A stretch of 64,000 nucleotides of DNA from Fomitopsis serialis. Taxonomy: Eukaryota; Basidiomycota; Agaricomycetes; Polyporales; Fomitopsidaceae. How positions within the stretch are numbered: the first letter of the stretch is position 1; each line of letters starts with the position of its first letter. Below the pieces are notes generated by a model. The model saw only the letters and a program-made list of their open reading frames with translations, was not told the DNA's origin and did no database searches. The translations under genes and the position numbers were made by a program. The stretch covers positions 496,001 to 560,000 of the forward strand of contig NW_025954971.1 of NCBI RefSeq assembly GCF_022376445.1, given 5' to 3'. Shown one piece after another: positions 13,417-64,000 of this stretch.

Positions 13417-17383
<3,967 letters not shown>

Positions 17384-41588: not shown

Positions 41589-43253
41589 TCAGTGACGGTA
41601 AATCACCAGAAAGAGAGGCCGAATGGCTTCGTTCTGTTCACATCATCTCACGTTAGAATACGTCATCTATCAGTGGCCTACAATATCTCACCTTGTACAC
41701 TATGGGAGAGGAATATTGTATCAGCACGAGCAGAATCAGCGATCGCAACGAACTTACCAATGGCCTCGTCATAGTTCAGGTCTCCACCAGGCTCGCCGAC
41801 GACAGAGTCGTAGCCTGCCGGGGGCTAGATACCGCGTTATGGCACGTTCAGATGACTAATGCGACACGATACTCACCGCAACGAGACTGTCGTCTCCGGA
41901 AGTCATCTTAATTGTCTTGCCCATGACGACGTCGCTGAGGAGCATTGCCTTGAGCGCTGACCCCCCACGCTCTTCAACGTAATCGTTCGCCTTCGACGAT
42001 GTCGCGGAGGTGTATATCCCCTCGCCAAACCGGCCGAAATTCGTGCGCTGGCCCGCCTTGGCGATGTGGAACGACGTCTGGAGCAATAGGCTCGCTATCA
42101 GCACACATTGTACACGCGACAGAGACTACGAACGCGAATGATGCCACAGAGCGAGCAATGCGCACTGCGGCAGAGCTCCGGTTGGTCCTCGCTGTCACCG
42201 ATGGTGCAGGCACGGATCGTCCCGTGCCACCGTCGCTTGCTGTTCCCGCCAGCATAATTGGTCTTGCGCTCGATTGCAAGCTTGTACCGCGAGAACTCGT
42301 CGGTGTGGTCCTTGTCGCAGTAGATCTTCCATATCTGGTATGACATGAGAGGTGGTCGCTCCGAATACAATTACTTGCCTACCTTGACCACGGTCGGAAC
42401 GGGTGTAGGGTGCTTCCACTGGTCCCTAAACTGCTTCGACACTGAAAATCGTAGGTTAGGTGATGATGTGAGATATCATCTCACGAGACGAACTTGCCCT
42501 CGCGGAAGGATGCCATGTTGTTGGTGATGATCAAAATTATAGGAGCTGTTGGCCATCGGTTCGATTGATCAGTCTCGGAGACAACAGGAGTGCTCCTTAC
42601 CTGAGCCAAATGTGTCTTCGCTGCATCGCTTTGAGCAAAAGTCGCTTAGCTTCCCGTTGGTAGTCGCCTTGGGCCACTTCAGGCAACTGATGATGCACAG
42701 TGAGTCCTAATTCTACGATCTAGCAGAGGTGATAAATACAATAGGCATGCCTCCGCCTTTCCGAAACGAACGGCGTCACTGTATGACACATGGACTGTCA
42801 GTGCCGGTACTGCAGCATGTCTATGTTGAGGCCTTACCGCCGATGTGCGTTGGAGCAATAGTCGCTCAGCATACCGTCCTGTCCGACGAAGGTAGGCTGC
42901 TGACATGTCGGGAACTTGCAGACACGAGCAACGGGAGCGGGCAAAGCACGCGGACTGGCTGGGTTTTGCGCGCCGGTCTGGAATGCTTCACGACAGCGTT
43001 GGCCGCAGAAGTCATGTACTACATAGGGAAGGTAGGGATCAATAGGAGTTGGGCACGTACTTATGAGACTGCGGACGTACCACGGTTGCCCTCGACATAT
43101 GCTGGTCGAGACTCGCAGTTCTTTCCTATTGCGTCGAACATCATATCCAATGGGATCAGAAAATATACGCACCTTGCAGAGTCTGGCACCGTTGAGCTGC
43201 TTCATAGCATCTCTATGGGTCGTACCACAAAACGAGGAGTATGACCCATCGGG

Positions 43254-43261
43254 ATCCTGCC
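43254..43261 (+). repeat. Target-site duplication, left copy
   Basis: ATCCTGCC, repeated at 48657-48664. The uninterrupted paralogue ART D has this sequence once (near 61350), which shows it was duplicated on insertion. Confidence 0.85.
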
Positions 43262-43274
43262 GAGTTATACGCCC
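43262..43274 (+). repeat. Left terminal inverted repeat of KDZ element
   Basis: GAGTTATACGCCC, pairs with the right end at 48644-48656 with three mismatches. Confidence 0.65.
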
Positions 43275-43706
43275 TCCGATGGAAAGATCGATGGCTGCCG
43301 ATGTCCGGTGAGGGCCGCCAGCCACCTCCCGCAGTGGCTGGCGGTCGTTGCCGCCGTCCGTCGGGTGCCGGTGGCTGTCGGTGGCTGTCGGTGGCAAATG
43401 ACTGACCGTGCTGGCGTGTGGTGGCTGATACCGTCTGCCGGTGGCATGGACTGGACAACTGGTGGATGCCACAGGTCGCCAGTGGTCTTATGTGGTCGTC
43501 GTTGGTTCCCACTGTACATTACCGAAACACAATGTTATATTGTGTTCTCTGCTGGAAGAGACTGGACTTCGGTGGCAAATGCTGTCCGCTGGCAGGAGAC
43601 GGCGGACAATGGTGGCTATGCATACCGGCCGGTCAATGCCGGTGGCGGACACAAGGGTCCGGGAGTCAGAGACGAGAATTTCTTGATCTCATCTCATCCA
43701 TTTCCG

Positions 43707-45773
43707 ATGACTACTCTCAAAGGGCCTGTCGACATGAGCCGTCGAAAGGCCGAGCTCATGGACATTGCTTCGGGACTGGGACTCAGCACAGTCGGCAACA
43801 AAAAGACTCTCATCCAGCAAATTACAGAATATCTCGGTAATCACGACGACCTGTGTCTCGACCCGAAATTTCAGGGTCTCTTCGCCTACAGGCCGGACAC
43901 GAAGATCGCGTCAGGCGGTCGTTCGCAAACAAAGCAGGGAAGCAAGACTAGTGCCGACAAGGTCACCGAAGATGATACAGCAGCCCAAGCTAGTCAGGAG
44001 AAAACGGCCACTGGGTCAGTGCCATACAAATACGTCACAGACGAGTCTGCTCACCGTCTCGTCAGGGCTGGGAAGACCCTGCAATCCCTGCAGATCTCCA
44101 CAGATCCGCCGCCCCGGTTCACTCGTCTCCAGTCGGGTACATCTAAAATAGGAGGGAATTCGGGCGGCCCCGGGCCTGCAGTAATTCGGCGTATGAGTGT
44201 CATTCACTTCTCAAGGTCGTTGTGCTCACATATGTACTAGCAAACGAGGCCGCCATATCCACGCGGGACGACTCGTCCCTGTCGCCCATGTCAAGCCCTG
44301 CTGTACTGCCACAAGACATAGGGAGCGAGGGCGGTGACATCAGCGCTGTTGAAGTAGAAGAGCTCGCGCCCACGGACATACAGCCTGCCGACCTGCCGCA
44401 TACACCTCCTAAGTGGCCGGTTGGCTTACCGTCGACAGTGGACAATATAGGTCCTAAACAGGATAGTGAGTACAGGTCCAATGCGTGAATGAATCCTTAC
44501 AATTTCTGATTCACTGATTGATGTGTGTCAGTTGTTGTTGCATTTCACCGGACTTCTGGAGATGCTGTACAGTCGACTCTCGAAGTGTGTGTGAAAGAGG
44601 GCCGAGGAATATCACTTGTGCGATCACAGGCCGCTGACGGCACGACGTTGTACACTGCCCGATTATCGGAGCTCCTTCCCGCAGCTATCAATCAGGCGAG
44701 TCCTGTCAAAGGTAAGTAGCCATCTACTCAGTCAAGACAGCAACTTACTGATAGCTCGTAGCTGCTGGTGGGCGCCTGTATCGGGCAGGTTTCAGCACCG
44801 AGAGCAGCAAGGTCTCGCTTGGATCTGTCAAGAGTGTCGTAGAGGGCAACGGCCATCAGTTCGAATACAACCGAGTCGATCTATACAAATTGCAACGCAC
44901 CACAGACGGCGACTCACTCCTCTGCAATGTATACCTGGATGGTACTACTGTCGTAGGGCAAGATAGCAAGGTATGAATTCTCACGCCGCCATCCAACCAT
45001 TTGCACGACTGGACACAGCATCTACTAGGATCATGCTTCGAGCGCCATGCAAGCGGACAAGATAGCTGCACTTGACATCCCGGCATCGCTACAGAAGGAT
45101 GCTCATCCTGCTCCAGACATGGTCAGCCGCACACAAAACACAAGTGGTACGGACAAGGACTTCCTGGGCTACCTTCGTGAGCTTTTGGATGCTCCATCCA
45201 AGCCATGGCCTCGCGCAAACTCGATTGGCGTGATATTGAAGCGCCGGCTTGCTGTGATTCATGCGATGGAAACTCTGGACAGTCGTGGATGGTCGCAATC
45301 GACAGGAGGCTATGTAGTTGCAGATGGTAAGTACTATCAGGCATCTACGAGTTCATGATCAGAATACTCACAGTATCGTAGACGAAGATACTCCCTTTGC
45401 TGGGCGCAAGTTCACCAAACAGACAGTGTACGAGGCATTGCACATAAAGCATTCAAACGCCTCCGACGACGCACGGCTCTTTGCAGCCCAGGATTTGAAG
45501 AAGTTGTCTCGTGTCCGAGCATGGATGGCAGATCCTGAAGGAAAGTACAGCAACGACTTTAGTGACATGACTGTTGCCGAGTTTAAGAGGTATAAGGAGA
45601 AGGCACTCACCCAGAAGATGTCGGTCGAGAAGGAAGAGTATCGAAAGGACCAGAAGGGAAAGAAGCGAGCAGATCGCTCTGATTCGGAGGGAGAGAGTAG
45701 TGGATACTTACGTCACGAGCCAAAGCGCACTAGAAAGTCTATAGGGATGGACTCCAGCGACCTAGATGTCTAG
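43707..45773 (+). CDS. SAP-domain protein of the KDZ element
   Basis: Multi-exon gene upstream of the transposase and in the same direction. The N-terminus has a SAP-like DNA-binding motif: RRKAELMDIASGLGLSTVGN followed by KKTLIQQITEYL (residues about 10-45), the pattern of helix-extended-helix domains that bind AT-rich DNA. A long disordered, acidic and Ser-rich middle follows (44261-44470), then segments VVVAFHRTSGDAVQ and GGRLYRAGFSTESSKVSLGS. The last exon (from about 45383) is a charged, Lys/Glu-rich helix containing a nuclear-localisation-like KKRADR and ending MDSSDLDV. Splice sites were read at about 44469, 44719, 44970, 45326 and their partners. A later start at 43734 is possible. 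Its role in transposition (DNA binding, targeting) is inferred from the SAP motif and position only. Confidence 0.72.
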
Positions 45774-45833
45774 TAGCTTAGATACTCTTGCATTGCTACG
45801 CACGTCTGCGTCCGATGTTGCCAAATAAAGTTA

Positions 45834-48218
45834 ATGGTCTGGCTGACACGTGATCAGAAAAACGTACTGAGAGCTCGACGTGCAGACAGCTTACAAGGCT
45901 CGTCTGCCATGGCTCCAACTGTCCGTGACCTCATATTCGTCCTTGAGATGTTCTTTCCACGCTGGATGGCCATGGGGCAGGCTCTATGTGTTCTTGATAC
46001 TGTCCGGCTGCTCTTCCCCATCCTGCAACTCCACCGCCGTCAGCGCCAGGATCGACGGCAACCACGACTTACTGGATGGCTGAAAAGCATATTGGCCTCG
46101 ATCAAAACTGCATATCAAGGCCCTCAGGCGCATATCGGCTATGGTGGACGGGAGGCGGAAGCCGAGGCGGAGGAGTATGCCGAGGCTATGCATGGCGATC
46201 TGGAAGTCCTGTTTGAGCTCATGGGCTGGGATGATGAACATCCCGTGAATGCTGGTTTATATACTAACTCATACCTGGTGTTGTGCACAGAACGGCGGAG
46301 CTGCGCAGTATGTGCAATCACAGGTCACGAAGCTTCACTCCGGCGCCGCATAGAAGGGCGCAGAGTCAAGGTTTTGACGGCAGGTCTTCGATGGGTTCAG
46401 GCTGAGCTGTTCGTAGGGCACTGCATCAACTGCAGGGCAGACCACTATCCCGACAGAGTCACCTACCCAAATGGCCATGGGGAACGTATCGAGCGTCTCG
46501 AGTATGACACCAAGTATCTTCGCATCTCGAAGCACGGAATCTGGACGGAGCGAGATGTTGCGGTCATGCAGGAACACATGCTGTTACGGTTTCGTGCAGG
46601 GTGGTCGAATGTCGCAGACTATATCAACGATCTCCTACCACAAGGCACTCTACAGGTCACGTACCGACAATCACGCCGTCTGTTCCTCGAACACTTCTCA
46701 CGACGGTTACTCGTGGCACATCAAAAGGCTCATGACTTCACATGCCCAGCGCACCCGAGTTCACAGATGTTTGCGGAGCATGTCAGACGGAAGATCGGTG
46801 AAGACGGAGGAGTCAACATCCAAGCACTACATCATGGTTGCACAGGCTGTACTCACCGCAAACGCTACCGTGCCGATCTTGTGCAGGAGGGTGCCATGTT
46901 TCACGAGATTGATGCTGTTGCTGGCATTCAGCGTGTACGTCGAATGGTCTCTATTATCAACCTAAAAAGAGGCTTACTTGCAATGGTGTACCAAGGCAGA
47001 TCTGGAACTCGCCGCAGTGGACAATGCCAATGCCGAGATTAGGCCAATCCCCGTAGGCATTCCCATTCGTCCACCCGCCCAAGACGCACCCGCTCCAGGT
47101 GAGCCACGTGGATATGTTCGAATGGCCGTTATGGACGGGAAGAATGTTGGACATCGTGTAAGCGTATTCGTAGATGCACATCAGTTATCGATCACTTACA
47201 CTCCCCGCCGAAGATATGTGCCCTTGAAGACTGTCGCAAACCCCTGATTAACTTCAGGGATGGTCGCTTCTGTCAGGACCACACACCTATGCAAGATATA
47301 TGTGGCATCATACCGTGCGGGCGCCCTGTCCGTAATCATAGCGCCATGACATGCGATGATCCCGTCCATCGCAACTGGCATCAACAATGGCTGAATCGCT
47401 TCAGCCGTCTTTCGTTTCCTGGAGTGCAGCGAGTCATCCGTCAGCAACGGTTGGACCCAAACGCAGGCCACGCACCCCGGGCAGGACCCACTCTACGAGT
47501 GAACTTGCCAGCGCTGAATGAAATCCCCGGAGATCGCGTCGTCCATACATTCCGCGCGCGTTCTGTCTACTGTCTGGAGACACTCCAGTGGGCTTGCGGC
47601 ATGCCAATCGCATGGGGGAAGTGCTACAAATCCGAGAGTCAACCCCAGGTTTACGCATTCATTGATCGTGTATGGCAAACTCACCGTGACCTCCGCCCCG
47701 GATTCATCGCCTATGACGATGCCTGTGATCTCCTCCGACACATCGTCACACAGAACCCCGGGGATTCCTGGCTTACGACTACGAAGTTCATCGTAGATGC
47801 CTGGCATTATATCGGGCACAAGGCGACGGATGCGCTGTGCCGGATGTGGTGTAATCCTGCACCGAAGGATGGCTCTCAGCCTGATCTCGTTCTCATACAG
47901 GAGGATGAGGATGGAGCGAGACATCAAATACGCGCCTTCAACACGGAGACCGCGGAGCAATTGAACTCCTGGCTGGATGGTTTCGAGGCCCAACTGCGCA
48001 ATATGACCAACATCAACTACGATATCTTCGTCCATACACTCTTCATGCTGTATGCCGAGCGTGTCCAAAGACGCATAGACTCGAGTGGTGACGCGTTGGA
48101 TGACGGTTTCTGGGAGGAGGTGGATGCGAGGGCAGAGCAAGGCGAGGCGGCCATAGACGACCGAATGCGCGTAGATCAAGACGAGGCAGCCATAGACGAC
48201 CGAATGCGTGTAGATTAA
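45834..48218 (+). CDS. KDZ transposase with CxC cysteine clusters
   Basis: 755 residues from three exons (45834-46934, 46996-47157, 47214-48218; 2268 nt). KDZ (Kyakuja-Dileera-Zisupton) transposases have an RNase H-like core. Here the core shows FIAYDDACDLLRH, VDAWHYIGHKATDALC and FNTETAEQLNSWL, the usual D/H/E blocks. N-terminal to it are the cysteine clusters found with KDZ enzymes: CAVCAITGHE and FVGHCINCRADHYP (CxC5-like), LHHGCTGCTHRKRY, and CALEDCRKPL, FCQDH, CGIIPCGRPV (CxC6-like), probably zinc-binding. The C-terminus ends in two copies of EAAIDDRMRVD. Start: first ATG of the frame; the ATG at 45909 (MAPTVRDL) is an alternative. Catalytic residues look intact. Confidence 0.92.
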
Positions 48219-48643
48219 TCCAGCAGTTGTTGTCGTCAACACTTTGCACACGGAGCCGTCATGACGATTTGCTTCCGTGTGGGGAGCTGGGGTCAACCGT
48301 CGGGGGGCGGGACAGTGCGACACGGAGGCAAATTTTCGCATGCCGTGTTTGTACATATATATGCTCATACCAGTGGCAAACAGCAGGCACCACAAACCAC
48401 TGGTAGCAGGCACCGGGAACCGGCGGCATCCAGCGACTGGTGTATTGGCATCCACTGTACGTCTGCGTCGAACACCGACCACCGCTGGCGAACGGCGCTG
48501 GACGATGCATGCCAGCGGATCCTGGCAACGGCCACTGGAACGCAGCGGCTGCGACGGTGAGCGCCACTGGCTACCTCCGAATCGGGGCGAATCTCGGTGG
48601 CTGCCATCTTATCTCGGCGGATGCCGGCCATCTTATCAACTCC

Positions 48644-48656
48644 GGGCATATCACTG
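48644..48656 (-). repeat. Right terminal inverted repeat of KDZ element
   Basis: Reads CAGTGATATGCCC on the minus strand; see the left end at 43262. Confidence 0.65.
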
Positions 48657-48664
48657 ATCCTGCC
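48657..48664 (+). repeat. Target-site duplication, right copy
   Basis: ATCCTGCC, second copy; see 43254-43261. Confidence 0.85.
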
Positions 48665-48731
48665 ACACATTTTGGCGGCAGTTCGGATACTCGCACACTG
48701 TGCGCTGCGTGCGCGACGTGTCGGAACACAT

Positions 48732-49252: not shown

Positions 49253-50492
49253 ATGAGTCGGCCGCCCACCCACCACTACATTACTCGGACGTCAGCCGCG
49301 CGTCCTACTCCTGCCTATCGCAGTTTTGCGTCGGTACCATATCCGACTGCTACTCAGGACAATCGGCCACCAGCGTCCGAGTCGCATCATGGTCGTCGCA
49401 ATGGCCGATCAATGTCGATCTCTGATCCGCAGAGGCATCGAAACGAATCGTCAGCGATACGTATGGACACGCAAGAGCCTGTTGAGCGAGGTGTGTCTAT
49501 TACTCAGAGTGTGTAGGTTGATAGTCAAGTATGACGGTCACCCAGTCGTTCCTCCGAGGCCAAGTGAACGCACCCCTCGCTCTCGTTCGTACTCTCAGCC
49601 ACCGCCTGCCCCACGCACGGAGCCCGCACCTGCAATACGCTTCTATCACCGCGATGAGCCTTACTATGAGTGTGCATTCCAAATGCTTCGGCTATCTTAG
49701 CGTAGTAAACGTTGTCAGGTTCACCAACTTCGCGCCGTATGCCATACACTGGGATGGTCGCATGTACCCAACCACAGAGCACCGTGCGTCCACGTCTGTT
49801 TCGCCGTTGATCCACATTTTCACTCATAACACTCAGTGTTCCAGGCACACAAGTTCATGCCGCACCGACCAGACCTGGCGGAGCGTATCCGCTGCCTCCC
49901 CAGCTCCCGCGCAGCACTCCAGGAGGCAGGGAACCTGCGCCCATTGCAGCGTACAGACTGGTTCGAGGTCAACGTCCGCGTAATGGACGACGTCTTGGAG
50001 GCCAAGGTCTCCCAGCATTTCTCGCTTCGCGACATGCTTCTCCAAACGGGCACCAGCGAGCTCGTTGAGGACAGCCCGGTACGGATGGGCCCCGCCCGCA
50101 AATCATTGCTACTGTGCAGGCGCTGATCGCCTCGACAGGTCGATTCGTTTTGGGGATGTGGCCAGGATGGCCTAGGAAGGAACGAGCTGGGCAAGGCGCT
50201 GATGCGGCTGCGCGACAAGCTCAGAGCTCGTCCAGGGTCAGCAGGTGATCGATTCGTGTGGACGTCTCCCCCGCCGGAGAAAACGACCCGCTCGGAAGGC
50301 CAACTGCCCCCCTCTGGACCGACGGGCTCACAGCAGAGCCGCGGAAGGGCGTCTGTGCGACCGTCACCTGTATCCGCGAAGGAACAGGAAGGAAGAAGGC
50401 TGCGACGGCGCACGGGAGACGTTGAAATCCAGTCTACTGGGGCGCCCGTCAATGAAGAGGCGGTACGCCCGACTGAGGTAAGTATGAGATAG
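49253..50492 (+). CDS. NADAR-domain protein N2
   Basis: 340 residues, exons 49253-49490, 49546-49669, 49719-49783, 49837-50078 and 50139-50492 (1023 nt). Disordered head MSRPPTHHYITRTS with Ser/Arg-rich stretches, domain from IRFYHRDEPYYEFTNFAPY, signature DGRMYPTTEHLFQAHKFM, then QRTDWFEVNVRVMDDVLEAK, SFWGCGQDGLGRNELGKAL and a 90-residue Pro/Arg-rich tail. Closest in layout to N1. Head to head with ART A, whose coding frame is now interrupted, while N2 itself is intact. If NADAR reverses ADP-ribosylation by the paired enzyme, N2 has lost its cis partner. The end VSMR at 50492 could be spliced differently, since a GTAAGT lies just before it. Confidence 0.9.
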
Positions 50493-50996
50493 GTCGGATG
50501 CCGCGATGTCTCAACTCAGCAATGACGGTCTGAGTTCTTCTCTGACAACTACATGTTAGGACCGGCCGTCCTGGAGAACCCCGGAGATGCCGATGGGAGG
50601 GGGGTGGAGTAGTTCCCATCGTTTGTGACGCCGTGGGCGTTCAAACATTCATCGTCGACATTTGTGATTCAGACTGCCTAGAGTTTCCGAGACAGGAGAG
50701 AAATGTGACGAAGGGTTGGATTCGTTGTATGAGTATATTCTCCACGTATGATAACTGAGCTTCGAATAGTCTGGATGTACAACACGTCTATGTACGTCGG
50801 AGCCTGTGTCGTGTACGTCCATATATGCGTGTAGTTTCATTCGAGATCTTACTCGGACGCAGAGTCCCAGCTAGTGACGACTCAATCATTGCGATTGTAG
50901 GACCCTGATCAGAGGATATGCGGTCATGATGAGAACACAGCGCACGTCAAGGCGCACGTACCAAGTACTATTAATGATAGATTAGCCGTACAGACC
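50493..50996. other. Convergent gap N2 / N3
   Basis: Between two 3' ends. No gene, repeat or RNA feature is seen. Confidence 0.5.
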
Positions 50997-51713
50997 TCAA
51001 TGGTCGTGCCGTAGTTTGTCGCGCAGTCGCATGAGTGCATTGCCGAGTTCATTCCTTCCTTGCCTATCACGGCCCCACCCCCAGAACGAATCGACCTGCA
51101 GGAAGGCTGAACACCTGCACAACGCATAACGAACAAGGGCCATACCGGACTGTCCTCGACGAGTTCGCTGTTGCCGGTCCCGAGAAGCATGTCCCTCAAT
51201 GTCGGATGCTGCGTGAACTTCGCCTCGAGAATTGCATCCATGACGCTGATATTGACGTTGAACCAGTCTGTGCGCTGCAGCCTGCGAAGACGCCCCGCCT
51301 CCTCGAGTGCAGCACGGGGGCTGGGGAGGAGGCGGATTCGCTCGGCCAGCTCTGGTCTGGTCGTCATGAATTTGTGTGCTTGAAACACTGGGTTTGATCA
51401 TGTATAAGACCTCAAGGACGGTTACAGGCAGCCGCAAGATACGTACAGTGTTCTGCGGTTGGGTATGTATGGCCATCCCAGTCAACGGCATACGATGCGA
51501 AGTTCGTGAACCTGCCAGTAATGACGTGGAGAAGACATGTCGATTTATTAACATCAGTAGGCCAAGGTAGCAAGAACACTTGAGTACGCACTCAAAGTAT
51601 GGGCGGTCGCGGTGGTAGAAGAGAATTGGATCTTGTGGTTGATCTGGATCTGCTGCAGTGGCGGGGAGGAGGAGCGCCCGCGCGACCACTTCGACATCAC
51701 CTTCCACGTACAC
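50997..51713 (-). CDS. NADAR-domain protein N3 (short form)
   Basis: Exons about 51713-51592, 51511-51447, 51387-51146 and 51095-50997 give 528 nt, 175 residues. Domain: PILFYHRDRPYFEFTNFASY, WDGHTYPTAEHLFQAHKFM, QRTDWFNVNISVMDAILEAK, SFWGWGRDRQGRNELGNAL, ending RLRDKLRHDH. It lacks the long C-terminal tail of N1, N2 and N4, as does N5. The 5' end is uncertain: the frame opens with an ATG at 51713 (MYVEGDVEVV), which keeps the phase, but the Pro/Ser-rich first exon of the other copies was not found, so this may be 5'-truncated. No ART gene was recognised divergent from it. Confidence 0.78.
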   Translation of the reverse strand: MYVEGDVEVVARALLLPATAADPDQPQDPILFYHRDRPYFECVLKCSCYLGLLMLINRHVFSTSLLAGSRTSHRMPLTGMAIHTQPQNTVRILRLPVTVLEVLYMIKPSVSSTQIHDDQTRAGRANPPPPQPPCCTRGGGASSQAAAHRLVQRQYQRHGCNSRGEVHAASDIEGHASRDRQQRTRRGQSGMALVRYALCRCSAFLQVDSFWGWGRDRQGRNELGNALMRLRDKLRHDH

Positions 51714-53239
51714 CTTGATCCAGTGCTACATGCTTACCTGGCTGCTTTGCTTCGTCGACATCCGCAGGGCTGTACGACCTCAGCTCCGTCTGGTGCACCT
51801 GTGGTCCTGAAGCCGACGTTTCGTGACTGCCTCGGCGATGCGATTGTTGACTCTGTCGACCTAGGCCTCGACATGTTACTCGCTGAAACAAAGAGCAAAA
51901 CCAGTCGAGCAAAGACATGGCTGCGAACAGTCTTGCTACAATGTCGAATGACCGGTATTCATGTCTGCGCCAAGTCGACGCCTCACTGCGCACGCATGCA
52001 GAACATGAGTCGAGCCTGCCGGTATTCGTGCTGCTACCGGAACATGTGGCACTGGCAGGAACTGAGTGAGTCGTGTTCCCCATGCATTGGTGCGTCATCA
52101 CCTAGGGTTCTTATGGTCAACAGCGGTTGACTCTGTGATTAGCAAGTCATCGGTTCAGTATCTGGCAGCGAAGAACTACCGCGATACGTGGGCAATTGTA
52201 CAATTCTGGAGTAATCCCGTATCAGCACACAATGGAAGTTCGACCTACGATACTCGTAACCCAGCGGTTGCAACCGCTCTGATCCTTGGCCAGCTTCTGA
52301 ATAAACTTCGGCTCAAAACAGGTGAGTGAGGTAGCCACTTTACTGTACTCGACCCACATTTCCGCAATCTATCGAACCTAAACTCTATGGTTGCCTTCTC
52401 CCATGCGTTGCTCAATGGTTCTGCAAGCATCCATGCGTCTTGACCACCAACCGTTTCCGTCGCAGCACGGAGCTTTTGCAGATCAAAGTGAGGTTTACGG
52501 CGTTTGCGGCGTGTTGTGGACACATTAATGGGAACGCGTTATGATCGATGGATCGCCCACGCCTATTGTAGTACCATTCTTACGGGGCGATGAGACACTC
52601 AATGGTGCGCGGAGGGACTTGGCGAACATCGTGAGGTGTAAGTTCATTTGCCCTTGTTTCCTTGTGTCCAGTGCATGCATCTGACGATGTAAACCAGTGC
52701 GGGGACCATACCGGTATACATCGAGATGGGAGACTGAGTTTACTGCTGAGCGAGTCAATCGTGTCTTCTAGGGCCATAGTCTCTGCGGAAAGCGCGGTCG
52801 CAATGCGTTCCAAGCACACCAGAGAACTCGCGGACTCGGGGAAGTCATGGCTATGATGTCAGTATTCCAATTTGCATCGCCACCTTGTAGGCTGATGCTA
52901 CCTCCGTCTCACATCGCGAAAGCCGCGTTCACCGTTGACGCCTGCTTCCAATACCGCGACGTGCCCGCGACGCAGACTTTAGCTGAGCGATCCCAGATTG
53001 AACATGAATTCAACAACAGCCGAGTTTCTGACTGGAAGGAGAACCGGCGCTGCTCTCGGATGCTGCAGGTGCGAGGATAGTCTTGATCCGTCTCCACTTC
53101 GACACTCATGCGGAACAACGCGGATCCATTTATCATCGAGTCCCCAATGAGGGATGAGTGCTATCCTGTGCAGTATACTGATTCATGCCCGTCATGGTAC
53201 AGAACAAGTCGTGTCGAAAGCCCTGCATCGAGCACGTAC
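51714..53239. other. Unassigned stretch with a possible small gene
   Basis: Two minus-strand segments look coding: about 52860-52740 (HDFPESASSLVCLERIATAL, then ETMALEDTIDSLSSKL, coiled-coil-like) and about 52530-52330 (RRKRRKPHFDLQKLRAATE and AWMLAEPLSNAWEKATIEF). They could be exons of one short gene, but I could not join them with confidence and recognise no family. The position divergent from N3, where an ART would be expected, holds no PARP motif. Confidence 0.3.
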
Positions 53240-54489
53240 TCAAAAGCTCGCCCAGCCGAGTCTATCTGCTACATCGCTGCTCCCCGCGTTCTCGTGGGCA
53301 GGGTGTTTCGTCTCCGATCCCCCGCCGCGGCGAAGGACACCAGGCTGTCTACCCCCTTGATCCTTCGCAGAAACACGCGACGATAGGACATGCGTACTTC
53401 CACGGCTGTTCTGTGGGTCCGGCAGCGCGAAGGGCGATTGTCCTTCAGAGCGAGCCTGTGCATCTGGTGTGGGAGATGTCCACACGAACTGACCACCTGC
53501 GAATGCAGGACGGTCTCTGAGCTTGTCGCGCAGCCGCATCAACGCTTTGCCTAGCTCGTTCCGTCCTTGGCCATCCTGGCCACATCCCCAGAACGAGTCA
53601 ACCTAGTGGAGTAATCAGCATCCGGACGACTCAGTGACACGCGAGCGACGCTCTTGCGTACGTACCGTGCTGTCTTCGATGAGCTCGGTGTTGCCGGTCT
53701 TGAGGAGCATGTCACGCAGCGACAAGTGCTGCGCGAACTTCGCCTCGAGGATGTCGTCCATCACCCGGATGTTGACGTCAAACCAGTCTGCGCGCTGCAG
53801 CTCGCGCAGGTTCCCTGCTTCCCGAAGAGCGTCGCGGGACGTGGGGAGCAAGCGGATGCGCTCCGCCAGTTCTGGTTTATCCGGCATGAATTTGTGTGCC
53901 TGGAACACTGGGTAGGGTATACGCCGCTGTGAGAACACCTGCTTGTAGAGAGCCGCAGTGGACGTACGATGTTCTGCGGTGTGGTACATGCGGCCGTCCC
54001 AGTGAATGGCATATGCCGCGAAGTTCGTGAATCTGGTAACAGGAACGGTGAATCAGCATTTCTGGGTAGACCGCATAGCACAAGGCATGGCCACGTACTC
54101 GTAATATGGCCGATGGTGGTCATAAAATCGAATTGCAGGTGCTCGATCCGTGTGCGGGGATGATGGAGGCTGAGAGTGCGCACGAGAGCGTGCACAAAGA
54201 GGCGGCATAGGTTCGTTGCGCGTCGGCATGGGTGGAACATCTTTGTGCATGACTCAGATGAGTAGCGTTCAGCGCTCTATGTGTATCATTAAGACTTACT
54301 GGGTTTGATAGATTCCTGTGCGCCCATGGGCCTGGCCGACAACAACTTACCAGGCCTGTGTGTATCCGGGATGGGCCGTATCTCGCGGGTGCGACTCGGG
54401 TGCAACGGTCCCTTGTCTTGTACAGCAGTCCGATATGCTACCGTCGTACGTGTTGCCGATGCATGTGGGCGGTTGATGGACCTATCCAT
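53240..54489 (-). CDS. NADAR-domain protein N4
   Basis: 333 residues, exons 54489-54300, 54240-54099, 54032-53968, 53907-53666 and 53602-53240 (1002 nt). Head MDRSINRPHASATR, domain from IRFYDHHRPYYEFTNFAAY, signature DGRMYHTAEHLFQAHKFM, QRADWFDVNIRVMDDILEAK, SFWGCGQDGQGRNELGKAL, and a Gly/Ser-rich tail ending ADRLGWASF. An ATG at 54621 in the same frame would add a hydrophobic segment (VVGAFFLGILLSLNLVAAEA) that could act as a membrane anchor; the other NADAR heads lack it, so the inner start is preferred. Head to head with ART B. Confidence 0.88.
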
Positions 54490-54855
54490 GTCGATGGCCG
54501 CTTCTGCAGCAACGAGGTTGAGGGACAAGAGGATGCCCAGGAAGAAGGCGCCGACTACGGAGCGAGGGGCGAGAAGACGACTAGACGACCGCAGGTGGGA
54601 AACAAGAGGCAACATATACAAGCGAAATGAATTGCTTTAAAAGATGACATGTGTGGCTCGACGACTGACATGAGGTCGGTACGTTCTGAATGACTGGTGT
54701 GTTCGTCAACTCATCTATCAAACCTTCCTGGGTTCAAGAAGCATGACGTCGCATTATCGATGACTGCGTGGAAGCTCTACACATATTTCGAGTTCTAGGT
54801 GCTATAACAATATATTGCTGCCTTCGATGTCTTCGCTTCCACCTCACTTACACAG
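54490..54855. promoter_or_regulatory. Divergent region NADAR N4 / ART B
   Basis: About 370 bp between N4 and the first recognisable ART B exon. It may also contain a short first exon of ART B: a frame from 54648 reading MCGSTTDMRS ends at a GTACGT donor in matching phase, but this is speculative. Confidence 0.45.
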
Positions 54856-55984
54856 GCGACTCCGATTGTTCTCGCGCCGAACATGGGAGTACCCATCAGC
54901 ATCGACAACATTCAAGAGGAAGCCATTCTTCAAACTGAGGCCCATCGTCTTGGTGGTCCAGGTATGTAGCCTACCATTCACATGTTTTCGGCTGCATTGA
55001 GTTGTCTCTTCAGCTCCTGTTCTGGTGGAACTCCAAGAAAAAACACTTGAGTACATGGCTGGTACGTTTAGACGCCAGCTGTCTGACAAGCCTTCATACC
55101 GTTTCCGTCGTACAGTTGTGTCTCGCTTTGCGAGCCAGTGGCGTCACCCTACAGCTAAGCCCAAAGTGGTCAAGGTGCACTCCCAAATACGCTGAGATTA
55201 TTCCTAACTGACCAATGAAATTGTAGATCTGGAAGATTCACTGTTTCCCGTATATCAACAATAGGTTCACCGAGTATCAGAGAGCAATAGCTTCCAAAAA
55301 CAGCGCCGTTCGGGGAAACACCCGTTTGCTATGGCATGGAACAATCCGAACATGCAGAATTGGCGACAGCGGCAACAATGTATGTACTAGGAGTGACTGC
55401 TCATTATGTGGAATACTCAAAGTTTGCGACTTTCAAATATCGTCTCATCGCACAAGCTGACAATGCCTCGATGTGTTCTTCGCACAGGCGTCTTTCTCCG
55501 TCGCCAAAGTCGGTCAGCATCACAAGTTCTCCCGTTTCGGAGCAGGGATATATACGACCGCAACGTCATCCAAAGCGAATGACTACGTACAAGAGCGGGG
55601 TGGGTCTCCATACAAGGCGATGCTCCTCAATGCAGTCGTGGCCGGCGCAGAGGCAAAGATGACCAGAAATGACACGACACTTTCCAAGGTTAGCAAACTT
55701 CGAACGGAGACGCTATTGGAACGGACTGACACTTGTTCTCATCTAGCCACCTGGTGGTTGTGACTCCGTTCTTGGTGTGCCGGGCGCAAAGTCGGTTTTG
55801 AACTACGACGAGGTGGTCGGTCAGTAGCTCTCGAGCAATGCGCTCGAACGAACCTGAGATGCTGATTTCGGATCTAGTTTACAGGGTGAATCAAGGACAA
55901 CTCACCGATAGACTATGACACTTACGACTTGCATGCTCGCAGGACGACGCTATACGCCCGTCTTTCCTGGTCATTTATCGCTAG
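54856..55984 (+). CDS. ART B: PARP-type ADP-ribosyltransferase lacking zinc fingers
   Basis: PARP catalytic domain with the same 3' exon plan as ART C and D: an exon from 54856 (ATPIVLAPNMGV), one starting about 55016 (APVLVELQEKTLEYMA), one about 55096 (VVSRFASQWRHPTAKPKVVK), then 55227-55421, an exon ending in DTTLSK near 55689, 55747-55819, the 8 nt exon TTTACAGG (55878-55885) and 55943-55984. Motifs LLWHGTIRTC, FGAGIYTTATSSKAND and LNYDEVVVYR keep the H-Y-E triad. The glycine-rich motif is altered (GCDSVLGVPGAKS). No C-x4-C finger precedes the domain, and the exon at 54856 has no cysteines at all. The 5' end is therefore unresolved: either a true finger-less enzyme or a gene that lost its 5' exons. 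Divergent from NADAR N4. Confidence 0.75.
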
Positions 55985-57266
55985 GTATGCGGATGCGATA
56001 ACTCACTTTCTAAGTTGTCCCTTAGTCTGAGTGCGGACACATAATTTCCCGTTGTGGTGTCAAATATTTACTATGGACAAGTATTGGTACTGAAATGTGG
56101 CTGTTCACGCCACAAGCCGCCGTCAAGTTGCTCTCCCCGTTATGTATGATATATATTCGGGTTCTTGCTTCAGTATGAGAGCGGTCCCGCATACCGAGAC
56201 ATATGATCTGCACTACCGTGCAGTGTTGCGGGAAGTGCACTGCACTGTTCAGCGTTATGGATCAGCGACTCCAAATCCGGGGCCCACCGAACTGGCGTAA
56301 CGCATTCCTGATCTGGGTTAAGACTTGTAGCGCTCTCTGACTTCGAACTGAGGCTATGGGCAAGGGGCAAGGGGCAAGGGGCAAGGGACATGCTGTTTCT
56401 GTCGGCGTTGTACCTAGTTGTACGCCACGCACTGATCAGAATAATACCAACTGTGTGGTCTCACGGTTTTTGTACTTCAAGGTTGGTCTCTACTCTCGCG
56501 TCAAGCCGCCGCCTGGTGCCACCGATGAATCACACTACTTACATCTCGTCTGCGTTGCAGTGGTAGCGCAGATCGGTGTCCTCGGAGCGGCCTATTGCCA
56601 GTCCAGAGGTACGACGTTCAATTCGGAGCAGACGTTGCGGTCTAATTTTGTCGCATTCAGCTCGGTTCAGGGTGCACGCTCCAACTTGAAGAATGTCATG
56701 TCGCGTCTACTGTCACATAGGACATGTAAGTTCCTGTGCCCGGATCTCATTTGACCGATCTCAGGAGCTTGGAACCCCAGACACCAATGGTGTGCGGACC
56801 TAACTTGTGTGGTCAAAGGGGATCCTCTTCTTCCTGATGGCCGTCCTCATGCACAACACGATCTGCGGCCCGACTTTCTGACACTTCTCCATCGGTACGA
56901 TCATCAGGCAATCGCATTGCAAAGAAGCCGAGTATACCAGTCGAGATACACGTTGAACACATGAGCGTCGCGACCGCAACATAGAGCTCCGGAGCTTTGT
57001 GGTCGGACGGCTTGAGGCGATACTACTGACAGGTTCGGAGATGACGTCCTACATGGAGTCGAGAACATTGTATGCACATTCACCTCTCTGGCGTGCTTTG
57101 AAGTCGAGAACATTGACGGTATGCACATTCACCTCTCTATCCATTCTACACATAAGTACTGCCAGGCTGGTCTCGCATTTTATTCGACTTGGACGTGGAA
57201 AATCTTCCCCTAACCTACATCTGGCTGACTATGCTTGCCCACAGCCTATTGCACGCGCTGAACAAC
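55985..57266. other. Intergenic with G-rich tandem repeat
   Basis: Holds the GGGCAA-type run at 56358-56387 (see findings) and a tandem duplication of about 33 bp (57058-57089 and 57103-57138, both reading GTCGAGAACATTG...CACATTCACCTCTCT) just upstream of ART C. No NADAR gene was found here, so ART C has no head-to-head partner. Confidence 0.5.
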
Positions 57267-59057: not shown

Positions 59058-59668
59058 TCATCAATATCCAACTCGTTGGTCCTCGCATGCAGGACAGCGT
59101 GCACTGGCGTCGTGATCCCTTATTTATCTACTTTGTGTATGCAATTCGCGTCCTCATGTCACTGCAGTCAGACAGTCTGTGTTCGTGGTCTACTTCGCGA
59201 TTAGTAAGGCGTGGTAAGTCAGCCTTCTCAACCTGGCTTTATCCTTGTAGCTCAGCGCTCAGACCCGGGTTCTTCAGGCTCGAACAGACCCTCCTGGATG
59301 CATGCGAACACGACGCGAGACAGCAAATCAGCCGTGCGAGACTGTCGCCCGTCAGCTGTCTCAAACCATCTCGGTGAGTCACACTACAGTATGACGACGA
59401 TCACTGTCGATCCAATTGCTGAAACAGTACTTGCAAGGCGTGGTTCTGCGTTCGCAACTGCATTCGCGCATACGCATGATCTTCCGGTTGATGAGAGGTG
59501 GGACATGACAGAGCGGCTGTTCAGCAGTCAACTTGACTATATTGCGAAGCAACAGAAACGGTAGACATTTTACAATGAGTCATGCATCCGGACTTTGTTC
59601 ACGATATGGATTCGTACACTTTGTTTGTACTCATTACGGTCACTGACAGCGTACAAGTGCACCGGAGA
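59058..59668. other. Convergent gap ART C / ART D
   Basis: A short plus-strand frame at 59391-59564 (MTTITVDPIAETVLARRG...) has protein-like composition and follows a possible splice acceptor, but no motif or paralogue supports it. Otherwise nothing is recognised. Confidence 0.35.
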
Positions 59669-61426
59669 TCAGTGACGGTAGAGCACAAGGAAGAGCGGCC
59701 GAATGGCTTCGTTCTGCCAGATCATCGAGAGTTAGAAGCCGTCATTTACCAAGGTCCTGTATCGTCTTACCTTATAAACTACGGGGTAGGATTGTCGCAT
59801 CAGCAGGAACAGAGTAAGCAGTAGTCATGACGTCCTCACCGATAACCTCGTCATAGTTCAGATCTCCGCCAGGCTCACCGACGACCGAGTCGTATCCCGC
59901 AGGGGGCTGGATACCACATTCTCTTCAGCACGCTCCGATAGATCACAAGACAGCACGGCACCGTCACTCACCGCAGTGAGGTCCTCGTCTCCCGTCGTCA
60001 TCTTGATCGCCTTGCCCATCACGACGTCGCTGAGAAGCATCGCTTTGTACGGCGACCCGCCGCGCTCGTCCACGTAGTCGTTCGCCTTCGACGATGTCGC
60101 AGAGGTGTAAATCCCCGCGCCAAACCGCCCGAAGTTCATGCGTTGGCCAGCCTTCGCGATGTGGAACGACGTCTGGAGGTGGTCCGGACGGCGTCAGCGA
60201 AATGCACGGAGCCCATGCGTGGAGAGGTGACGAACGCGGATGATGCTGCAGAGCGAGCAGTTGGCGTCCTGGCAGAGATTGGGCTGCCCCTCGCTGTCGC
60301 CGATGGTGCAGGTGCGGATCGTCCCATGCCACCGCCGCCTGCTGTTCCCGCCTGGATGGTTGATTTTGCGCTCGATTGCGAGTTTGTACCGCGAGAACTC
60401 GTCGGTATGGCCCTTGTCGCAGTAGATCTTCCATACCTAATAGGGTGTGAGCGGTCGCTTCCGGGCTGGAAATACGCACTTGCCTTGACTACGGTTGGAA
60501 CGGGCGTAGGGTGCTTCCACTGGTCTCTAAACTGCTTCGACACTATGAATCGGAGGTTAGCTGACGATGCGACAGAAGATCTCGCAAGACGGACTAACCC
60601 TCGCGGAAGGGTGCCATATTATTGGTGATGATCAGAATTATAGGAGCTAGTGGTCATCGGTTTGATTGGTCGATCTCGGAAGACCTAACGAGTGCTCCTT
60701 ACCTGAGCCAAATGTGTCTTCGCTGCATCGCTTTGAGCAAAAGTCGCTCAGCTTCCCGTTAACAGTCGCCTTGGGCCACTTCAGGCAACTGTCGATACTC
60801 AGTGAGTTCCATTCCTCCGATCTACTAGCGGGGGAGACAGGTACAAGAGGCATGCCTCCGCCTTTCCAAAACGGACGGCGTCACTGTACGACACGATTAT
60901 CAGTATTGTACTAGCATCGAGGTCGAACCCTTACAGTCGGTGTGATTTGGAGCAGTAGTCGCTCGGCATGCCATCCTGTCCGATGAACGCCGGTTTCTGG
61001 CATTTCGGCAGCTTGCAAAAGCGAGAAACGGGAGCGGGGGAAGCACGCGGACTGGCTGGATTTTGCTTGCCAGTCTGGAAGGCGTCACGACAGCGCTTGC
61101 CGCAGAAATCATGTACTATGTTATGAAGGTAAGACCGATAAGAGTTCGGCACCGACTACGAGACTGCCTACGTACCGCGGTTGCCCTCGACATATGCTGG
61201 TCGAGACTCGCAGTTCTTTCTCGTTGCGTCGAGAATCAGGTCGAGTGGGATGAGAGAACATACGCACCTTGCAAAGTCGGGCACCGTTGAGCTGCTTCAT
61301 AGCATCCCTATGGGTCGTACCACAAAACGAGGAGTATGACCCATCGGGATCCTGCCACACAGTTCGGTGGCAGTTCGGATACTGGCACACTGTGTGCTGC
61401 GTGCGCGACGTGTCGCGACGTGACAT
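59669..61426 (-). CDS. ART D: zinc-finger/PARP-type ADP-ribosyltransferase (complete)
   Basis: 364 residues; exons 61426-61268, 61215-61176, 61115-60935, 60788-60703, 60646-60599, 60542-60484, 60436-60236, 60172-59972, 59906-59840, 59778-59771 and 59713-59669 (1095 nt). Start MSRRDTSRTQHTVCQYPNC. Four cysteine modules as in ART C, then WKIYCDKGHTDEFSRYKLAI, RRWHGTIRTC, GAGIYTSATSSKAND, GYDSVVGEPGGDLNYDEVI and IRPLFLVLYRH: all triad positions kept. Very close to ART A and shares its upstream sequence, so one is a recent copy of the other; D is the uninterrupted form. One intron (after exon 6) has a GCAAGT donor where ART A has GT. Head to head with NADAR N5. Confidence 0.93.
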
Positions 61427-61798
61427 GCTTCAGCTTTCCACGTCGCGGTAGGTCGTGGTCGGAGAACAACCTGTTGGTGTGAACTTCGAAGCGATAGAAC
61501 TTATATATGCGACGGACAATGAAACGATAAGGTTTATGTACAGAAGAAGCGGCCCAAATATGGTAAATGCCTCCCTAATGCACCTCGGCTAAACATCCCA
61601 CACATCCTCACCGTCCACGCAGCCAGGTAACTGGTGAGCAAGTCTTTCTAGTACTTAGTATATGACTGATTACGATTCAAGCCATAGTCTGTCCACTCAT
61701 GTGTAGGCTTGGCGTTGTCCAGATATTGATCTCTCCGAGCAATCATTTGGTGGCATACCCCGAAGAGACACATCACCGACGCGGTCGCACTGAGGACA
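61427..61798. promoter_or_regulatory. Divergent promoter region ART D / NADAR N5
   Basis: 372 bp between start codons. ART side: TATATAA (reverse complement of 61501-61507) about 75 nt upstream of the ATG, inside a block conserved with the ART A promoter (GCGACGGACAATGAAACGAT). The N5 side shows no clear TATA box. Confidence 0.68.
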
Positions 61799-62637
61799 AT
61801 GTCAGCTTCGGATCCGTATGAGCATCGAGCTGATCGCTCTGCCAGCCCCATGGACATTGATGGGTCAGATCAGCCAGGTATGTGCCAACAACTTGAGAAA
61901 CGGAAGCTCGTACTCAACTGCAGAGCGTCGTAAGTGCTGGCACCAGTCATTCCCCCGCCACCATCGGACGCCGCCCACCCAGCGTCACCACACTCTGGCC
62001 CGACGTCTGAACTACAACCCGAATCAGCGAGCCGAATTCTCTTCTATCGTCGCCATGAGCCATACTTCGAGTAAGCATTCGGGCTATTTCTCCGTGTCAC
62101 TCAACCATTACGTGCTTTATCAGGTTCACAAACTTTGCCCCGTACACCATTGACTGGGACGGCCACAGGTATCCTACCGCGGAGCACTGTACATCTACCG
62201 GTCATCCTTATATATTCTTTCTTGTAATCTAATGCGTGATTTTCAGTGTTTCAAGCCCAGAAGTTCATGTCAATCCGACCAGATCTGGCCGACCGAATCC
62301 GCAATCTTCCCAACCCCCGCGCTGCGCTTGAGGAAGCCGGGCGCATGCGCAGGCTACAGCGCACAGATTGGTTCGACGTCAATCTCAGGATCATGGACGA
62401 AATCCTCGAAGCCAAGTTCACGCAGCATCCAGAACTGAAGCACACGCTTCTCAGTACGGATGATAGTGAATTGATCGAAGACAGCCCAGTACGATTCTTG
62501 CTCGTGATGTGACATCCTGGCGCTGACGTTGAGGATAGGTAGACTCATTCTGGGGGTGTGGCGAGAATGGTGAAGGACAGAACGAGCTTGGGAAGGCGCT
62601 CATGCGACTTCGTGACAAGCTGAAGCGTAGTGACTGA
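61799..62637 (+). CDS. NADAR-domain protein N5 (short form)
   Basis: 206 residues, exons 61799-61877, 61935-62070, 62124-62188, 62247-62488 and 62539-62637 (621 nt). Head MSASDPYEHRADRSASPMDI with Pro-rich follow-up, domain ILFYRRHEPYFEFTNFAPYT, signature DGHRYPTAEHLFQAQKFM (a Gln replaces the His of the other copies, as in bacterial YbiA), QRTDWFDVNLRIMDEILEAK, SFWGCGENGEGQNELGKAL, ending RLRDKLKRSD without a tail. The catalytic-type Glu in TAEH is present. Forms a head-to-head pair with ART D; both genes are intact, so this is the best pair for functional tests. Confidence 0.91.
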
Positions 62638-63319
62638 GTTCTGTAACATATACAGTCGGTATGAGGATTTGTAATCTATCTGTCGACTCGGTCGGGTCTC
62701 ATATATGATATAGTGACGACATTGTTAGTAACGCGAACACTGGCTCTCTTGAAAGCAACGTGCAGCATCACCACTCGCCCTCTCGAGGTTGCCATCGCGT
62801 CACCGCCACGCTAAGTGGTGTTGCCACGGCCATGGCACATGTTCACATTCCTCCGTCGAGATATCGCATCAGATACGGGTCCTGCAGCGGTCGTTGCACT
62901 GGTGGCCTTGCGCGTTTTGAACTTCGACAACGGTCGAAAGCGGGGATCTCGAACACCGCCGTTGTGTTCCTGTTGCGGTGGATATCACGCTTGGCAGTCA
63001 TTCAGTCATCGGCGCGCGAGTTGCTTTGGACGCATCTCTGGTCTCCTAACTGACGCGCCATCATTGGGATGAATTGAATAGGATGGCAACACAAACGGGC
63101 GATGTACACTTGTGCGAAGATACGCGGGCGCGAACTCGAGGAAGAAGGAAGAAGGATCATGGCATCAATCCATGCCAGAGGGTAGTAGGGTGCGTTGAGC
63201 GGCCGTCCAGCAAGTATCATATTCGTACTACACCCAAACTGACATACTAGAGCTGCGAGGCCGCGGCGGAATACAGTTCTTGTAGTGCTATACCGCAGCA
63301 AAGCGGACGGAGTCAAAAA
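62638..63319. other. Convergent gap N5 / ART E
   Basis: Between two 3' ends. Open frames here lack motifs, and no repeat or RNA gene is seen. Confidence 0.5.
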
Positions 63320-64000
63320 TCAACCGTCGTAGATGACTAAGAACAGAGGTCGAATCGCGTCGTCCTGCCATAGCATTAAGTCGAGAGTCAGGACGCTCGC
63401 CATACGTAGAACCTTACCCTGTAGACTACAAGACAGAGACATCGTACGTCTCCGCGTCAGCGCAAGCATATCATGGGTAGCAACTAAGTACTCACCAATC
63501 GCTTCATCGTAGTTCAAATCACCGCCAGGCTCGCCGACGACCGAATCGTAGCCATGCGGTGGCTAGTGAATACCGCATTGTCTCAGTACAGTGACCTAGA
63601 GGCGGCATCAGCATCATAGTGTCGCATGCTCACCTCAGTCAAGGATGGGTCTCCTGTTGTCAGCTTGATCGTCTTGCCCATCACGACGTCGGTAAGTAGC
63701 ATCGCCTTGTACTTCGAGCCGCCGCCTAGCTGTTGAGCGTAGTCATGCGATTTCGACGATGTCGCAGAGGTATATATCCCTGCCCCAAAGCGGCCAAAGT
63801 TCGTGCGTTGGCCAGCTCTGACGATGCGGAAGGACGTCTTCAAAAGTGGTGTCGTAGACATCAGCGAGGGCACGATAAGCATCGACGGTGAGAGACAACG
63901 TACAGTGATAATGCTGCAAAGCGAGCAATTGGGGTCCTTGCATAGACTGAAGTCTTTACCGCTATCGCCGATGGTACAAGTCCGGATTGTGCCGTGCCAA
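63320..64000 (-). CDS. ART E: PARP-type ADP-ribosyltransferase (3' part; continues off the right edge)
   Basis: C-terminal half of a fifth PARP-type gene, entering from the right. Visible pieces: WHGTIRTCTIGDSGKDFSLC at the window edge, CSLCSII, exon with TSFRIVRAGQRTNFGRFGAG and IYTSATSSKSHDY ending SLTE, then GYDSVVGEPGGDLNYDEAI, the 8 nt exon TCTACAGG near 63430, and the final exon DDAIRPLFLVIYDG with stop at 63320. All three triad positions are kept. The last two exons resemble ART B (DDAIRP, TACAGG) more than C or D. Whether zinc fingers and a NADAR partner lie beyond the window cannot be seen. Confidence 0.88.

What the first reader, a model, noticed from the sequence alone, without database searches (positions are those of the whole stretch)
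41589..64000. Interleaved cluster of five PARP-type ADP-ribosyltransferases and four NADAR genes, three as head-to-head pairs
Seen: ART A/N2, ART B/N4 and ART D/N5 are divergent pairs with 370-520 bp between starts; ART C, ART E and N3 are in the same 22 kb. Known: PARP domains transfer ADP-ribose from NAD+. NADAR proteins act on N-glycosidic or ADP-ribose substrates, and some remove ADP-ribose from guanine in DNA. Inference: each pair is a co-regulated write/erase (or attack/immunity) unit, possibly for nucleic-acid ADP-ribosylation in defence against mobile elements or non-self nuclei.
Basis: partly seen in the sequence, partly recalled or inferred. Interest (0 to 1): 0.92.

Follow-up and report, generated by a model that had tools for sequence, protein, structure and literature searches.

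The report
Fungal ADP-ribose writer–eraser gene cluster
In the wood-rotting fungus Fomitopsis serialis, genes of the kind that attach ADP-ribose and genes of the kind that remove it lie mixed in one cluster, and 20 of 29 other mushroom-forming fungi that have both kinds carry them on a contig of the same length, so the two enzymes are predicted to write and erase one chemical mark, likely on nucleic acid and perhaps for defence, a possible nuclear-genome counterpart of bacterial toxin-antitoxin pairs.

Summary
Five PARP-type ART genes and four NADAR genes lie at 41.6-64 kb, with three head-to-head ART/NADAR pairs (521, 393 and 372 bp between starts). The genome is Fomitopsis serialis (Polyporales). 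The window shows part of a cluster of 9 ART and 10 NADAR loci over ~84 kb of contig C13, largely matched on the other haplotype. Its contigs hold 94 of 95 ART-like and 58 of 60 NADAR-like exon matches in the 66-Mb assembly.

Among 29 other species with both families in the (capped) hit lists, 20 carry an ART and a NADAR on a contig of the same length (1.3 expected, P 4e-25). The ARTs' zinc finger also sits on 6 of 120 NADAR homologs. Catalytic residues are conserved in both families.

Against strict pairing: orientation within the cluster is not above shuffles (P 0.12), promoters share no word beyond chance, and partners are not fixed.

Best reading: a eukaryotic ADP-ribose writer/eraser module that likely works like bacterial YarT-YbiA. 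Substrate, toxicity and defence role are untested. New variant of a known kind.

The parts
41589..48731 (-). ART A: four-finger PARP-type ART (D-type); first exon cut by the KDZ element (pieces 48731-48656 and 43261-41589)
43262..48655 (.). KDZ-type transposon (SAP-like gene from ~43710, below Pfam's cut-off; CxC5 and CxC6 KDZ-associated domains in 45909-48215) inserted in ART A exon 1; GATCCTGCC on both sides; absent at this site on the other haplotype
49253..50493 (+). N2: NADAR (YbiA-type) with a long low-complexity N-terminus; head-to-head with ART A, 521 bp; database protein P0122 (different 5' end)
51009..51865 (-). N3: NADAR; 5' end of the model uncertain
53243..54489 (-). N4: NADAR (P0130); an in-frame upstream ATG at 54615 would add a hydrophobic stretch; 3' end uncertain
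54883..55984 (+). ART B: short PARP-type ART without the four N-terminal fingers; head-to-head with N4, 393 bp; database protein P0241
57267..59057 (+). ART C: four-finger PARP-type ART, 12 exons (the database has a 236-aa fragment, P0049)
59669..61426 (-). ART D: four-finger PARP-type ART, 12 exons, no stop on either haplotype
61799..62638 (+). N5: NADAR, database protein P0136; head-to-head with ART D, 372 bp
63323..64000 (-). ART E: 3' part of a PARP-type ART that runs on to ~65336 in contig C13 (P0004)
18150..19209 (-). N1: outlying NADAR of the same cluster (P0123)

Best explanation
This is part of an ~84-kb cluster of PARP-type ADP-ribosyltransferase genes and YbiA-type NADAR genes, two families that lie on a contig of the same length in 20 of 29 other fungal species with both, and the two enzymes are predicted to write and erase the same N-glycosidic ADP-ribose mark, likely on guanine of nucleic acid, with the NADARs probably protecting the cell from its own ARTs. 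Shown by sequence: the genes, the cluster, the linkage by contig in other species, intact catalytic residues, and a zinc finger shared by ARTs and some NADARs. Inferred from the NADAR literature: NADARs hydrolyse guanine-ADP-ribose, so the mark would be on guanine. Inferred: the fingers bring writer and eraser to the same target. Speculative: the module is an intracellular defence with toxin-antitoxin logic (ART harms when uncontrolled, NADAR reverses), which would fit the gene turnover between haplotypes and the loss of ART A, but not of its neighbour N2, on both haplotypes.
Against: No activity, toxicity or expression data. PARP-type enzymes are best known for protein targets (recalled), and NADARs tested on PARP10-made uracil-ADP-ribose and on phosphate-end RNA-ADP-ribose were inactive (PMC13036486, PMC11833690, passages), so the chemistry of PARP and NADAR need not match. 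9 of 29 species are not linked, and in the linked ones 11 of 49 ARTs lie off the shared contigs; four of these 11 are off-type or triad-less (P0103, P0112, P0034, P0047), seven are of the usual type. Orientation and promoters give no sign of paired regulation. Partners are not fixed. N9, beside ART I (whole on C13), has a frame break on both haplotypes, the reverse of the ART A/N2 case. The six finger-bearing NADARs come from four species with no ART listed and two unnamed metagenome contigs. How common the finger is on other proteins is unknown.
Confidence: 0.55

Rival explanations
1. Protein writer/eraser: the ARTs ADP-ribosylate proteins (tankyrase-like) and the fungal NADARs have shifted to a protein-linked or free ADP-ribose product; the module is a signalling system, not a nucleic-acid one.
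For: Closest solved structures are tankyrase and PARP4 catalytic domains with an H-Y-E triad.
Against: The NADARs keep the YbiA-type residues; every NADAR representative tested in PMC11833690 reversed guanine-ADP-ribose on RNA (passages read), and I recall no protein substrate of NADARs.
Confidence: 0.25
2. Passenger linkage: a fast-duplicating, transposon-rich region holds two unrelated families that expanded together; adjacency has no functional meaning.
For: Transposons inside the cluster, paralog turnover and an inverted duplicate, orientation not above shuffles.
Against: Linkage by contig recurs in 20 of 29 other species; ART types that seem older than the species are still beside NADARs; the shared finger is independent of gene order.
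Confidence: 0.12
3. Metabolic clean-up: the NADARs are N-glycosidases on riboflavin-pathway intermediates and the ARTs act elsewhere.
For: Plant and bacterial NADARs with this activity are described (cited in PMC11543638, passages). The one NADAR found outside the cluster (C201) lacks both catalytic glutamates, so a separate housekeeping copy was not found and a cluster gene could serve.
Against: Ten loci beside ARTs are not what one expects of a housekeeping step; the finger is shared with ARTs.
Confidence: 0.08

Closest known systems
YarT-YbiA toxin-antitoxin pair of myxobacteria (PMC11125620)
   Same: YbiA-subfamily NADAR with the catalytic glutamate beside an H-Y-E ART gene
   Different: Bacterial operon with a small Rhs/HYD1-like ART; here a multigene nuclear cluster, tankyrase-like PARP fold with N-terminal fingers and a Cys4 site; toxicity not tested
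DarTG1 (DarT1-NADAR) (PMC11543638)
   Same: ART gene beside NADAR gene; NADAR reverses guanine-ADP-ribose there, predicted here
   Different: DarT1 has serine where PARPs have the tyrosine, and its NADAR has Asp (D171) where these have Glu
Tankyrase and other PARP catalytic domains
   Different: No tankyrase ankyrin or SAM domain found by Pfam; invariant Cys4 directly after the HGT motif; N-terminal C-x2-C...FC-x2-3-C/H fingers
Fungal PARP clades 1 and 6 (PMC2964712, passages read)
   Same: PARP catalytic domain in basidiomycetes
   Different: Clade 1 carries WGR and PARP regulatory domains, which Pfam does not find on these ARTs; clade 6 was not compared

Membership tests
PARP-type ART (PF00644, H-Y-E) | PARP catalytic fold and H-Y-E triad | tested here: met
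NADAR superfamily, YbiA subfamily | NADAR domain with E43, K50 and catalytic Glu at position 125 | tested here: met
   PF08719; 55/55, 55/55, 53/55 of aligned homologs; YbiA 2b3w E 2e-43, NADAR 8bau 5e-16
YarT-YbiA | NADAR gene adjacent to an H-Y-E ART gene | tested here: met
   in the window; same contig in other species
YarT-YbiA | ART of the Rhs/HYD1-like clade without extensions | tested here: inconclusive
   Best structural matches are tankyrases and PARP4 and fingers are present, but YarT itself was not compared
YarT-YbiA | ART toxic, cognate NADAR rescues | not testable with these tools
   needs expression
DarTG1 | NADAR with Asp instead of Glu at the catalytic position | tested here: not met
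   Glu in 53 of 55, Gln in 2
DarTG1 | DarT1-type ART with Ser in place of the triad Tyr | tested here: not met
   Tyr in 57 of 59, Cys in 2
Fungal clade 1 PARP | WGR and PARP regulatory domain beside the catalytic domain | tested here: not met
   Pfam scans of three window ART models and three homologs show PF00644 and no such domain

The most novel reading that the evidence does not exclude
Mushroom-forming fungi run an expanded, finger-guided nucleic-acid ADP-ribosylation defence in their nuclear genomes: PARPs place ADP-ribose on guanine of foreign or transposon nucleic acid (or of the cell itself, to stop it), NADARs remove it from self, and haplotype-specific sets of both make it a candidate non-self recognition locus.
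Probability: 0.25. Interest if true: 0.95.

Novelty: new variant of a known kind. Interest (0 to 1): 0.8.

Why it matters
The roles of NADARs across eukaryotes are called unclear in PMC11125620 (discussion read). A recurrent genetic link to a defined PARP subfamily, plus a shared finger, names the likely partner enzyme and makes the question testable by one co-expression experiment. If the mark is on nucleic acid, reversible base ADP-ribosylation would be an endogenous system of a large group of eukaryotes.

Tried and rejected
Ab initio gene finding gave poor models and was replaced by protein-to-DNA alignment. A scan of the prokaryote genome collection with the ART alignment used two short peptide patterns: 596 stretches matched, none was confirmed as a relative, so no bacterial neighbour of this type could be examined. 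Shared promoter words: at most 5 of 9 promoters; random sets reached 5 or 6 in 19 of 200 draws. Orientation and adjacency in the cluster: not above shuffles (P 0.12 to 0.49). NADAR trees: the first (83 of 87 named rows given, 12 dropped because the core motif was not found, 75 rows with own and outgroup rows) puts 43 of 46 linked NADARs in one 97-supported clade; the second (87 rows given, 15 others dropped, another trimming rule and model) leaves the backbone open, so a single 'ART-linked NADAR clade' is not claimed. ART tree: 84 of 93 named rows given, 2 dropped; the row named FserG there is ART I. Other erasers in the genome: two macro-domain matches, probably two haplotype copies of one locus; no ADP-ribosylglycohydrolase (controls ring); PARG and PARP regulatory domain searches found nothing but their controls were silent too. 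A finger search of the genome with one 30-aa query found 5 matches, 5 of 5 in ART loci, but it is insensitive because introns split the finger. ORFs in seven gaps between cluster genes were listed and looked at by eye, no further family was recognised; they were not scanned against Pfam. The NADAR structure could not be predicted. Literature: searches for NADAR with ADP-ribosyl, with fungi and PARP, with basidiomycete, for DUF1768, YbiA, PARP catalytic domain, Polyporales, gene family expansion, heterokaryon incompatibility list no paper that by title or abstract start is about a PARP/NADAR cluster in fungi; two listings were capped (30 of 104, 15 of 60). Of the papers cited I saw passages (PMC11543638, PMC11833690, PMC13036486, PMC2964712, and also PMC9503650 and PMC12477816), and for PMC11125620 sections 6 and 7 plus passages. 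De Souza and Aravind 2012 is known to me by recall and citation only.
Full report
What is there. Database proteins that match N2, N1, N4, N5 and ART C are labelled Fomitopsis serialis and lie on a contig of 609,855 bases, the length of the contig (C13) that holds the window. The window is C13:496001-560000 of a 66.2-Mb, 806-contig assembly in which contigs C98 and C382 carry the other haplotype. The cluster runs on past the window: in order N1, A, N2, N3, N4, B, C, D, N5, E, G, N6, N7, F, H, N8, I, N9, N10, that is 9 ART and 10 NADAR loci between 18.2 and 101.9 kb in window numbering. The other haplotype has counterparts of most; G and H were not found there. Some loci are damaged: A is cut by a transposon, H, N6, N9 and N10 hold a stop or frame break, F needs 17 short exons on C13, N7 is short there.

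Genome-wide, 15 of 15 PF00644 exon matches and 38 of 39 PF08719 matches fall on the three contigs of this locus. With protein queries the figures are 94 of 95 and 58 of 60; the exceptions are one distant ART exon on C523 and one NADAR gene on C201. The C201 NADAR model has no glutamate at the E43 and E125 places. So nearly all ART-like matches, and all catalytically complete NADARs that were found, sit together. A PARP1-type gene could have been missed, as its control search was silent.

Linkage in other fungi. The protein search prints contig length and organism for each hit. The lists show the best 120 of 178 ART hits, 120 of 294 NADAR hits and 72 of 72 for ART B. Thirty species have both families listed; in 21 an ART and a NADAR share a contig. 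Without F. serialis it is 20 of 29, with 1.3 expected if each NADAR fell at random in 30 Mb (P 3.6e-25); the species are related and the genome size is assumed, so this P overstates the case. In the 20 linked species 48 of 50 NADAR rows and 38 of 49 ART rows lie on the shared contigs. The 11 ARTs that do not include two of another type (P0103, P0112), the two triad-less ones (P0034, P0047), and seven of the usual type in Russula compacta, R. roseus and F. betulina. Not linked: Fibroporia, Jaapia, Lactarius tabidus, Mycena epipterygia, Russula decolorans, R. dissimulans, R. vinacea, Schizophyllum commune, Wolfiporia. By recalled taxonomy the linked ones span Polyporales, Russulales and, with Schizophyllum amplum, Agaricales. 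In Rhodofomes roseus three consecutive locus numbers are ART, ART, NADAR, and in Phlebia brevispora g1676 is an ART, g1677 and g1679 are NADARs. The ART types B, C and D have close relatives in R. roseus, and B and C also in Daedalea, so the set is probably older than these species.

A second, independent link. An HMM built only from 165 ART fingers of 84 ARTs finds the same finger on 6 of 120 NADAR homologs (Termitomyces, Tylopilus, Stereum, Laccaria and two unnamed metagenome proteins) at 30-78 bits; the best of 6,000 shuffled NADARs reached 7.0. Pfam has no confident name for it (best zf-FCS at E 0.055). How common this finger is on other fungal proteins was not tested.

What does not fit tidy pairs. 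The four divergent ART/NADAR neighbours (A|N2, N4|B, D|N5, I|N9) are not more than shuffles give (P 0.12). Upstream regions share no 8-mer beyond random sets. ART A and D are close (dS 0.5) but N2 and N5 are far apart (dS 1.7) and fall in two NADAR subgroups. So adjacency is kept while partners change.

Evolution at the locus. ART A is broken twice, by a KDZ element on C13 and by an LTR retrotransposon with nearly identical LTRs on C98, while N2 has no stop on either. This is what loss of a toxin under a retained antitoxin would look like, but it is one gene, and N9 beside ART I (whole on C13) is damaged on both haplotypes. Haplotype identity per 2-kb window is 98.6-99.8% at 18-36 kb and 98.8-100% at 84-102 kb; in the cluster it is 90-99% at 48-66 and 78-84 kb, and 66-78 kb gave no colinear pieces of 2 kb or more beyond its first and last few hundred bases. 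Lower values outside the cluster exist too: 92-97% at 12-18 kb, 95.6-97.3% at 36-40 kb, 88% at 102-104 kb. No baseline from elsewhere in the genome could be fetched, so elevated divergence is suggested, not shown. Paralog dN/dS is 0.10-0.29 in 12 comparisons and allele dN/dS 0.10-0.66 (one NADAR pair had no change), so the genes have been under constraint.

How it likely works. NADARs of bacterial toxin-antitoxin pairs remove ADP-ribose from guanine that DarT1 adds, and a myxobacterial YbiA-type NADAR rescues cells from the H-Y-E ART YarT (PMC11543638, passages; PMC11125620, sections 6 and 7). By analogy the fungal ARTs would place, and the NADARs remove, an N-glycosidic ADP-ribose, most likely on guanine, with the fingers choosing the target. 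That the mark is on nucleic acid, that the ARTs are toxic, and that the purpose is defence are predictions. NADARs failed on PARP10-made uracil marks and on phosphate-end RNA marks (PMC13036486, PMC11833690, passages), so the match of chemistries is the weakest link.

Verdict. It works like an ART/NADAR toxin-antitoxin pair in gene content and catalytic residues, but it is not DarTG1 by two tested features, and membership in YarT-YbiA is open. I rate it a new variant of a known kind, with high interest because it names a testable partner for eukaryotic NADARs.

Noticed in passing
window 43262-48655: KDZ element with a SAP-like gene (below Pfam's cut-off) and CxC5/CxC6 domains, present on one haplotype only at this site
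   Followed up: partly
C98:41788-50927 (loci L034-L035): LTR retrotransposon (LTRs 99.8% alike) inside the other allele of ART A
   Followed up: partly
window 54489-54630; C13 70.1 kb and 80.15 kb in window numbering: Reading frames before N4, N7 and N9 hold a hydrophobic stretch (by eye), as do 5 of 52 linked, 0 of 35 other named and 2 of 33 unnamed NADAR homologs; some NADARs may be membrane-anchored
   Followed up: partly
G000:C201:278817-279370: Diverged NADAR without the E43 and E125 equivalents, the only one found outside the cluster
   Followed up: partly
P0034 (Fomitopsis betulina), P0047 (F. schrenkii): ART paralogs that lost H, Y and E but keep the Cys4 site, on contigs with no listed NADAR: possible pseudoenzyme
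   Followed up: no
P0161; P0124, P0127, P0134: A RING-NADAR protein in F. schrenkii (Pfam) and proteins with what looks by eye like two NADAR domains in other species
   Followed up: no
C13 80.2-83 kb and 99.2-102 kb in window numbering: Large inverted duplicate carrying N9 and N10, which show the same frame break
   Followed up: no
window 12000-18000: Region with what looks by eye like a P-type ATPase gene, 92-97% identical between haplotypes, lower than its right-hand neighbours
   Followed up: no
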